From Imbricaverruca yamaguchii (Eukaryota; Arthropoda; Thecostraca; Neoverrucidae), in assembly GCA_034440575.1 (NCBI GenBank), contig JAOTOL010000983.1, forward strand, positions 62,001 to 126,000: a DNA stretch of 64,000 nucleotides. Direction: 5' to 3'. Positions within the stretch are counted from its first letter, which is position 1, and every line of letters begins with the position of its first letter. Shown here one piece after another: positions 20,969 through 57,700 of the stretch. The translations under genes were made by a program, and so were the position numbers. The notes beneath the pieces are model-generated. The model searched no databases, had not been told where the DNA came from, and was given only the letters and a program-made list of their open reading frames with translations.

Positions 20969-21761
20969 TCAGACAGGCCGGCATCGTCGAGCGGCGCATC
21001 CCGCGGTGCCGTGACGGCTTCGTCTCCCCCGGCGTCTCCCCCCGCCTCTCCCACAGCATCTCCCCCCACGTCTCCGGCCGGGGAGGCCGTCACGACACTG
21101 GGCACGGCTTCCGATGCGTTCCCACCCTTTGCCGCTCGGCGGCCAGTTCTGTACGGACCTGAGCTGCTCCCCAGCTGCCGGGCTCCTCCGGATCCGCCCT
21201 GAAGAGACGTGCGGCTGACTTTGACTCACGCCTAGCCGAACCACCTTGACTGGCGACGCGACTGCCGGCTCTCGCCCGCTGCGGCTGACTGAGCTGGCCG
21301 AGCGGCGACTGGTGGCGTTGCGGTCCGCCCGAACGTCCACGGGTTCTGCAGGCTCCACGCGACCGCCTTCGCGCTCTTCTTGGCGTTCCGCACGTGTGTC
21401 GGCACGTTCCGCACGTGTGTCGGCACGTTCCGCACGCGTGTCGGCACGTTCCGCACGTGTGTCGGCACGTTCCGCACGCGTGTCGGCACGTTCCGCACGT
21501 GGGTCGACACGTGCCGCGCGCTTGTGCGCCGGTCCGTGCTCGGTGAAGTCGTACAGCCGGCCGGAGCGCCGGTGGGGATGCAGCACGTGCTGGTCGACGA
21601 AGCTGGCCGGCTCGTGGCCCAGATCGACGGCGTGCCAGTAGGCCCTGACCAGGTCGGCGGCCTTCTCGGCGATCATGATGGTCGGCGCGTTCGTGTTGCC
21701 GGACACGATCCGTGGCATCACGGAGGCGTCGACGATGCGCAGGCCGCGTATCCCGTACACC
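20969..21761 (-). CDS. GMC exon 10: C-terminus with heptad repeats
   Basis: 793 bp from acceptor ctcag (21,762) to stop at 20,969. The first part is strongly conserved: [40 protein letters not shown]. About 60 residues later, near residues 650-693, a 21-bp tandem repeat is read as (ADTRAER)n, then a basic, low-complexity tail with GRRRGG-like stretches. Normal GMC proteins end shortly after the AEKA helix, so the real stop or a further intron may lie before the repeat. This is the least certain part of the gene model. Confidence 0.75.
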
Positions 21762-54700: not shown

Positions 54701-57700
54701 TAGTCTTCGGAGCCGTCTGGCCGATGCGAAATGTCTGGTCCTGACACGAGTAGTCGGGGCCCTGACGCATTTTTCGAGGCCTCTTCTGGGCCTTCTTTCG
54801 TGACCTTTCGAGACCTGGACCAGGATCACTTTTTGGACAGCGACCCCGGCGCTTGCTATCGCCGGACGTGAATTGTTGAGGTCCCGCCTCGATTTTGTGG
54901 GCCCCGGCGTGACAATTCGGGCTCCGACCCGCTTGACGAAGATGGTGACAATGCACTTATTTTGGGCTCATTAGTCAAGGGATGGCTGCACTGGGCTTGT
55001 AGTGTCAACCATGCATTGTCAATGCGCCCAGCATGGTCTGCAGCACGGGCCTCGGGAAGCGTTCCTTTGCGTGTCGCCACTCTACACCTTGTGACTAAAT
55101 ATGGCGTTCATATATAATATGGAATATTATAATGATGTGGTCCATAATAGGGACCGGTCCATAATAATATGGACCGGTGCTTCCATATCAAACGCCCCAA
55201 TGTTTGCACACGAAACGCCTCCGCACGGAACGACTGTGCCAGCTCTTACCCCACTCTTGAAGCCTCGACATGACCTGGGGTCACGCTGGCTGCGGAAGCC
55301 CCAGTCGTAGCTGGGCGTGCCGTACACGAGCGTGGTCAGCAGGGGGATCTCTGTGAGACCGGTGCCGTCTTCGCCGGCCTCCAGAAGCAGCACGTGGTCG
55401 TGCCGGGTCTCCGAGAGCCTGCTGGCCATCACTGCGCCGCCCGAGCCGGCACCCACTGCAGACATAGATCACATACTGCACCACCGGAGCCGGCACCCAC
55501 TGCAGACATAGATCACATACCGTACCACTGGAGCCGGCACCCACTGCAGACATAGATCACATACCGTACCACTGGAGCCGGCACCCACTGCAGACATAGA
55601 TCACATACTGCACCACCGGAGCCGGCACCCACTGCAGACATAGATCACATACCGTACCACTGGAGCCGGCACCCACTGCAGACATAGATCACATACCGTA
55701 CCACTGGAGCCGGCACCCACTGTAGACATAGATCACATACCGTACCACTGGAGCCGGCACCCACTGCAGACATAGATCACATACCGTACCACCGGAGCCG
55801 GCACCCACTGCAGATATAGATCACATACCGTACCACCGGAGCCGGCACCCACTGCAGATATAGATCACATACCGTACCACCGGAGCCGGCACCCACTGCA
55901 GACATAGATTACATACTGCACCACTGGAGCCGGAACCCACTGTAGACATAGATCACATACCGTACCACCGGAGTCGGCATCCATTGCAAACATAGATCAC
56001 ATCCCGTACCACTGGAGCCGACACCCACTGCAGACATAGATCACATACTGCACCACCGGAGCCAGCACCCATTGCAGACAGATCACATACGTTGCTCCAC
56101 AGACAGAACAAATACCGCACTATTATTTAATAATCACAGTTGTAGAAATGGGTGTAGATGGGGAAGGGAGGGGTACCTGGGCACGATGCCCCTTAAACAT
56201 GGACATTACAGTGTTTACTGGAAAGGATCAACTCCCAGCCGGCCGAATGCCCCCCCCCTTATCAATTTCGAACGTTCGGCCTCCTGTGGCGGGAATCTAC
56301 TGCAGACGAAAGACCGATCCATATACCTTGATCGGGGGACTTGTAGGGGACTTGTAGGGGACTTGCCTGGAGGGGAGCCAGTCCTAAGCGGAGCCACCAA
56401 TTTTAAAGAGCCTGCAGGTGTGCGGCACACCTGCAGGCATAGAAAAGGCACACCGTGTGCCTTTTCCATCCAGAGAGGCGTGTTTTTTACTCTGAAAGGC
56501 GTCATTTGCTTCAAATCTCGGTGATTGCGGGAGATGGGGGTTCACTCAAACGTCTAGAAGGGGTGCCACCCCTTCCCATGGGTATAATATTTTCTCAGTT
56601 CCCCCTGGATCCGTCGCTGCTGGAGACCTGGAACCAAAGGCCCCGAGTTCGACACTCGCACCGGTCAGGACATTTCCCAATCCCGCGGCCCACCGGCGAA
56701 ACAGCGTGGGCGGCGCCATTAGCCACGATCGTACACAAAGTGCGTCGTGAACCACCCAACAAGCAACAAACAAGTGCTAGAGACCCAGATAGAGCACCGC
56801 AATACCATTGCAGGCATCTACTGCAGGCATAGGTAAAGCACCGCATAACCATTGCAGATATCTACTGCAGACATAGGTGAACACTGTATAACCTCTGCAG
56901 ACACCCACTGAAGACATAAGTAAACACCGTATAACCATTGCAGTCATCTACTGCAGACACAGGTAAAACATTGCGTAACCACTGCAGATATCTACTGCAA
57001 AAATAGGCACGATCATAGTCGGCACTCACTGCAGGTATGATGCTTACTTCCAATGCTGCGGGTGCAATACCATTGCGGGAACCTTCTGCGAACGTAAGTA
57101 ATATAATAAGGTCATATAATATGACCTAAATATGGTCACGTAATATCGTATTATAAGATGGACGTGAGTCATATGCTTCACCAAATGGAACCGAACAATG
57201 GGAGGCACTGAATAACTGAACACAAAATGAACAGCAGAATTAAACGTGCAATCTAGAGGAGTTAATCGCAATTTACTTCGACAGAGCCATGGTCACGCCG
57301 ACGAATTTTTAATGTTGAGAGGACGGAGGACTTTGGACCATTTTTGCGCATGCAACGCTATCAGCGCGAAATCTCGCTTCACGAGGCTTTGGGACACGCG
57401 TCACCCCCCCCCCCCCGTCCGTCCCCCATGGTGACGACGTCTGCGGACAGTATTAGAGTGGCGGCTGGCCTTGAACTTTGCCACGGCGACGCATTACTCG
57501 GACTGCTTTCACGTGATCTTGAACTCCCCCGGGCATTCCGTGGGCGGTGATATAAGTGATCACGTGGTCGGACCGCATTGCCGCGAGTTTTTGCCGCGCC
57601 GCAGAAAAACCAGCCGGGCGCTGGCGCAACGCGAACGCCAAAAAGCGTCCGATCGCAGCCAATTTCCAGCCAACCGTTTTACAATCTGCTCGACCAGATT

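What the first reader, a model, noticed from the sequence alone, without database searches (positions are those of the whole stretch)
21761..56090. Minisatellites seeded at the splice sites of one gene
In the ten-exon GMC gene at least nine exon edges carry a tandem array whose unit contains that edge's own splice site, often with exon bases: acceptors of exons 2 (44 bp), 4 (72 bp), 6 (20 bp), 10 (~55 bp); donors of exons 3 (29 bp), 4 (23 bp), 7 (21 bp), 8 (17 bp) and 9 (41 bp). The units are unrelated, so this is a repeated process and not one spreading repeat. Slippage or tandem duplication with breakpoints at exon borders, with selection keeping one working junction, would explain it. It may be a genome-wide habit of this species. 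Splice-site reading is direct; mechanism is inference.
Basis: partly seen in the sequence, partly recalled or inferred. Interest (0 to 1): 0.92.

Follow-up and report, generated by a model that had tools for sequence, protein, structure and literature searches.

The report
Duplicated exon edges in a barnacle gene
In one barnacle gene, half of the places where coding pieces meet the spacer DNA have been copied over and over in a row, splice site included, a pattern described before in lancelets and seen here in a very distant animal.

Summary
The window is from a barnacle. A ten-exon GMC oxidoreductase gene (minus strand, 58231-20969) reads as an intact 828-aa protein. Of its 18 internal exon edges, 9 are spanned by a tandem array whose unit contains that edge's splice site; 2 more have an array within 13 bp. 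Reshuffling arrays inside their own introns gives on average 0.53 edges (maximum 5 in 20,000), against 11 observed. Edge arrays show no kinship with one another. At five edges the exonic part of intronic copies still encodes exact or near versions of conserved residues (for example [24 protein letters not shown]), so the exon was the source. In eight arrays 70 of 77 copies keep AG or GT; 72 of 79 extra sites would give a premature stop if used. The anatomy matches amphioxus 'mirages' (minisatellite-like duplications of intron-exon boundaries), here dense and in an arthropod. Likely process: repeated tandem duplication across exon edges, with selection keeping the exon-side copy and turnover filling the intron. 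A genome-wide habit could not be tested: the genome search did not complete.

The parts
58087..58231 (-). GMC exon 1 (coding part; no array at its donor)
   Evidence: (MGV...YDFIV then G|GTGAGT), full reading frame, tblastn of barnacle homologues
55250..55455 (-). GMC exon 2
55443..56090 (-). 44-bp array, 14.8 copies, spanning the exon 2 acceptor; drawn as 20 intron + 24 exon nt per unit; exonic part of the 14 intronic copies reads VGAGSGGA (3), VGAGSSGT (5), VGAGSGGT (3) or other variants (3)
42404..42593 (-). GMC exon 3
42599..43406 (-). 8-bp array ending 6 bp upstream of the exon 3 acceptor; the unit has no AG before the exon, so a neighbour and not a junction duplication
42156..42406 (-). 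29-bp array, 8.7 copies, spanning the exon 3 donor
40280..40411 (-). GMC exon 4; donor CAC|GTTGGT chosen because it restores the R-F-M conserved in barnacle homologues
40388..40962 (-). 73-bp array, 7.9 copies, spanning the exon 4 acceptor; exonic part of seven intronic copies reads PYHGVGG (6) or PFHGVGG (1)
40098..40286 (-). 23-bp array, 8.2 copies, spanning the exon 4 donor
36406..36701 (-). GMC exon 5 (an interspersed element abuts its acceptor by eye; no array there)
35974..36393 (-). triplet array whose near end lies 13 bp from the last base of exon 5
33333..33489 (-). GMC exon 6
33481..33585 (-). 20-bp array, 4.4 copies, spanning the exon 6 acceptor; the related array 33980-34039 lies deeper in the same intron
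28850..29019 (-). GMC exon 7
28218..28926 (-). composite array at the exon 7 donor: 21-bp units plus 100- and 121-bp duplications giving three copies of the exon 7 tail, two of them intronic
25054..25248 (-). GMC exon 8
24688..25054 (-). 17-bp array, 21.7 copies, at the exon 8 donor (one exon base inside the array)
23555..23757 (-). GMC exon 9
23153..23583 (-). 41-bp array, 10.5 copies, spanning the exon 9 donor; unit = 29 exon + 12 intron nt; exonic part of eight intronic copies reads HYAVVDNQL (2) or near variants (6)
20969..21761 (-). GMC exon 10 to the stop codon
21734..21889 (-). 54-bp array, 2.9 copies, spanning the exon 10 acceptor; exon reads RVYGIRGLR, the two intronic copies RVYGMRGLR and RVYGILGHH

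Best explanation
These are junction minisatellites of the kind called 'mirages' in amphioxus. At nine edges a short segment lying across the exon edge (unit 17 to 73 bp; at exon 7 also 100 and 121 bp) was duplicated in tandem and then amplified by unequal exchange or slippage. Only the copy touching the rest of the exon is held by selection, because it carries the coding bases and the splice site in use; every further copy falls into the intron, where it is tolerated as long as the spliceosome uses the exon-side copy. Because that anchor is constantly maintained, arrays at edges outlast, or are re-seeded more often than, arrays elsewhere in introns. Shown: the arrays, their position, the exon origin of the units at five edges, the lack of kinship between edge arrays, the intact gene. 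Inferred: slippage or unequal exchange, exclusive use of the exon-side copy, and anchoring rather than a mutational hot spot as the cause of the enrichment.
For: Nine of 18 edges spanned and 11 of 18 within 15 bp, against 0.53 expected; 9 spanning arrays against 0.37-0.74 under uniform seeding. Intronic copies carry exonic bases that encode exact or near versions of conserved residues: beside exon 2 VGAGSGGA in 3 of 14 intronic copies and near variants in the rest; beside exon 4 PYHGVGG in 6 of 7 and PFHGVGG in 1; beside exon 9 HYAVVDNQL in 2 of 8 and near variants in 6; beside exon 10 RVYGMRGLR and RVYGILGHH; and two exon 7 tail copies, [25 protein letters not shown] and [25 protein letters not shown] (homologues). 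At exon 2 the nearest intronic copy differs from the anchor at three sites, all synonymous (codons read by eye); other copies also differ in residues. No edge array matched another edge array, while two deeper arrays match the edge array of the same intron (33980 to e6, 56795 to e2). Donors and acceptors are both affected, and the two introns spanned at both ends (3 and 9) carry unmatched units at each end. Intact 828-aa frame with GT-AG at all nine introns, 74% identical to an Amphibalanus protein over the 559-aa query.
Against: No RNA evidence, so use of the exon-side copy rests on homology and frame alone. The decline of similarity away from the exon that I would expect is significant in only one of seven arrays tested (e2, rho -0.71, P 0.004; the other six not, and e4d leans the other way). 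Edge arrays are not cleaner than interior arrays by eye in the TRF table. One weak match crosses introns: the interior array 34302 against the exon 4 acceptor array (score 26, 0 of 200 shuffles), which the model does not predict. At the exon 8 and exon 3 donors the array holds only 1 and 3 exon bases. Nothing here separates anchored survival from a mutational bias. One gene only.
Confidence: 0.72

Rival explanations
1. Exon edges are mutational hot spots: something about transcription, splicing-coupled structure or sequence makes tandem duplications start there, without any special retention afterwards.
For: The excess over uniform seeding is more than tenfold (9 against at most 0.74); arrays cover 20.1% of this gene and 1.0% of the first 20 kb of the window.
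Against: Unit lengths and sequences differ and no kinship among edge arrays was found, so no common trigger sequence is visible. Anchored retention predicts the same pattern.
Confidence: 0.2
2. The repeated splice sites are selected: extra donors and acceptors help splicing or make isoforms.
For: 70 of 77 copies in eight arrays keep AG or GT (the 8 working copies included, exon 7 left out). At the exon 8 donor 6 of 18 decoys stay open and would add multiples of 17 residues.
Against: 72 of 79 decoys would give a premature stop. Array-bearing donors are not significantly weaker in U1 pairing (5 against 4 donors, one-sided P 0.23; energies). Homogenisation alone could keep the dinucleotides.
Confidence: 0.05
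3. The introns themselves were born by tandem duplication of exon sequence, and the arrays are the remains.
For: Tandem duplication is a documented route to new introns (PMC4974935, search listing with the start of its abstract), and PMC3087553 proposes it from mirages (passages).
Against: Birth by duplication predicts related sequence at the two ends of an intron; the two introns spanned at both ends carry unmatched units. The introns are 1.3-12.7 kb long.
Confidence: 0.01
4. Assembly artefact.
For: Tandem arrays are hard to assemble and copy number cannot be checked here.
Against: In most arrays the copies differ from each other in irregular ways, every edge array is shorter than 1 kb, and the pattern is tied to exon edges of an intact gene.
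Confidence: 0.015
5. Chance closeness in a gene full of repeats.
For: Array coverage of the introns is 20.4%; random intron points often meet an array (mean 4.06 of 18 within 15 bp).
Against: Array ends, not just coverage, fall at the edges: 0 of 20,000 reshuffles reach 11. Units at several edges carry exon-derived bases.
Confidence: 0.005

Closest known systems
Amphioxus 'mirages' (Adh3, globins BflGb6 and BflGb9, troponin C, PGBD5)
   [quoted passage not shown] PMC3902484 passage).
   Different: Here in an arthropod, and 9 of 18 edges of one gene are spanned; the passages I read name one boundary in each of two globin genes and 60- and 108-bp repeats in PGBD5 (I did not see how many edges of Adh3 are affected). 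Instability and RNA were studied there and not here.
Intron gain by tandem duplication (Rogers model; potato RdRp case)
   Same: Tandem duplication carrying splice signals.
   Different: There the duplication makes a new intron from exon sequence; here existing long introns gain extra copies of one of their edges. (PMC4974935 seen as search listing only; the Rogers model as cited in PMC3087553.)
Human interferon-induced 6-16 gene minisatellite with multiple splice donors (recalled, not read)
   Same: A minisatellite at an exon end that repeats a splice donor.
   Different: One edge of one gene. Recalled from memory; no call supports it.

Membership tests
Mirage minisatellites | tandem repeats that span an exon-intron boundary | tested here: met
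   9 of 18 edges
Mirage minisatellites | units hold exon bases as well as intron bases | tested here: met
   Clear at six edges (13, 24, 9 and 28 exon nt at the acceptors of exons 2, 4, 6, 10; 77 and 29 at the donors of exons 7, 9), slight at the donors of exon 4 (7), exon 3 (3) and exon 8 (1)
Mirage minisatellites | both 5' and 3' boundaries affected | tested here: met
   4 acceptors and 5 donors
Mirage minisatellites | many copies keep AG or GT | tested here: met
   70 of 77 copies in 8 arrays, the working copies included; the exon 7 array was left out of this count
Mirage minisatellites | host gene intact and spliced normally | tested here: inconclusive
   Intact 828-aa frame, nine GT-AG introns; no RNA data
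Mirage minisatellites | length instability between haplotypes or cells | not testable with these tools
   One haplotype only
Intron gain by tandem duplication | sequence at the two ends of the intron related by duplication | tested here: not met
   No match among edge-array units, introns 3 and 9 included, at the sensitivity (consensus units, local alignment)

The most novel reading that the evidence does not exclude
Barnacles have a genome-wide process in which exon edges act as anchors that keep seeding minisatellites, arisen independently of amphioxus. Their spliceosomes must then pick the exon-side copy out of up to about twenty near-identical candidates, which would make exon definition, not splice-site strength, the deciding signal.
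Probability: 0.4. Interest if true: 0.82.

Novelty: new member of a known kind. Interest (0 to 1): 0.62.

Why it matters
[quoted passage not shown] Finding them at half of the edges of a barnacle gene says the process is not tied to one lineage, and gives a dense natural experiment: many near-identical splice sites in series beside the one that homology says is used. It bears on how splice sites are chosen, how minisatellites are born and kept, and whether edge duplications feed new introns or isoforms. It also warns that gene predictors may choose wrong edges in such genomes.

Tried and rejected
A first gene model had three junctions off by one (exon 6 acceptor and donor, exon 7 acceptor) and broke the frame; corrected. 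For the exon 4 donor I tried three sites; the site one repeat further on also keeps the frame but adds nine residues that none of the five aligned barnacle homologues has, so CAC|GTTGGT was kept on the conserved R-F-M. Tested and not supported: array-bearing donors being weaker (P 0.23); a general fall of similarity away from the exon (significant in 1 of 7 arrays tested; the eighth, at exon 10, has too few copies); consistently stronger U1 pairing of the working donor (true against 18 of 18 decoys at exon 8 and 7 of 8 at exon 3; at exon 4 5 of 7 decoys pair slightly better; at exon 7 13 of 17 and at exon 9 4 of 6 pair equally).

Limits of the counts. Overlapping TRF rows were merged: 63 rows, 39 arrays, 32 in the gene; the 2 lying wholly in exon 10 were dropped before the seeding test, leaving 30, one of which (45527-45554) lies in the coding frame of the astacin gene nested in intron 2. 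The kinship test used one consensus unit per array and left out the triplet array at exon 5; its four matches were 30187-30324, 33481-33980, 55443-56795 and, weakly, 34302-40388. The decoy list (79) comes from motif patterns and may miss degenerate copies; its outcome was recounted (72 premature stops, 7 open; the 2 at exon 10 stop within the last exon). The exon 7 array was left out of the copy alignment, and the exon 4 peptide tally there misses the working copy. A first wording of this report gave RVYGIRGLR for intronic copies beside exon 10; that is the exon's own reading, and the copies read RVYGMRGLR and RVYGILGHH. I lowered some rival odds so that all sum to one; no result forced it.

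Literature: 10 of 10 searches used. No paper held the three terms barnacle, intron and minisatellite; the eight papers holding barnacle, splice site, tandem, intron and genome showed no such case in the listing (passages read in one, PMC3793950: it reports one exon in two tandem copies, and the 12 of 14 places shown mention no junction arrays). The original Adh3 paper is not held (the id was recalled and wrong by one, as one search shows), so what I say of it comes from later papers.

Full report
What the gene is. The window holds a GMC oxidoreductase gene on the minus strand. Joining ten exons gives one open frame of 828 residues from 58231 to 20969, with GT-AG at all nine introns. Pfam finds GMC_oxred_N (159 bits) and GMC_oxred_C (114 bits) in exons 2-10. 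The closest protein is a glucose dehydrogenase [FAD, quinone] of the barnacle Amphibalanus amphitrite, 74% identical over the 559-aa query, and the five best hits are all barnacle. The astacin gene in intron 2 also has barnacle proteins as its two best hits. The window is therefore a barnacle, very probably not A. amphitrite itself. tblastn with three barnacle homologues finds the same ten exons, and two of the three also find two extra copies of the exon 7 tail.

Noticed in passing
window 45467-46834 (+), ORF 44903-46834: An astacin-CUB metalloprotease gene with its coding part in one open frame lies inside intron 2 of the GMC gene on the opposite strand; its two best hits are barnacle. The start is the Met I chose.
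   Followed up: partly
window 3916-10135: Four U1 snRNA genes in alternating orientation, 137-145 bits against a gathering score of 69.5, all with the same first 12 bases.
   Followed up: no
window 21384-21517: A 21-bp array inside exon 10 that repeats seven residues (ADTRAER) in frame in the C-terminal tail; a second, 12-bp array in the same exon at 21021-21075.
   Followed up: no
window 28626-28839: Two intronic copies of the exon 7 tail that still read as protein; one ([13 protein letters not shown]...) has the histidine and threonine found in P0003 and P0005 rather than the residues of this gene's own exon.
   Followed up: partly
window about 36729-36900, also near 18000, 39950, 56700 and 59850: An interspersed element with a similar short translated stretch recurs in the window; one copy abuts the exon 5 acceptor, which has no array (by eye).
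   Followed up: no
window 34302-34949 and 40388-40962: A 44-bp interior array of intron 5 and the exon 4 acceptor array share a weak match (score 26, 0 of 200 shuffles reach it); cause unknown.
   Followed up: no
window about 31910-32320 and 47030-48730: Stretches that read like reverse transcriptase and RNase H of non-LTR elements inside introns (by eye, family recalled, not searched).
   Followed up: no
P0002 and P0005 in alignment A1: Published barnacle gene models have odd insertions or gaps at exon borders (after exon 2, start of exon 6, after exon 7), as might be expected if predictors stumble over repeated splice sites.
   Followed up: no
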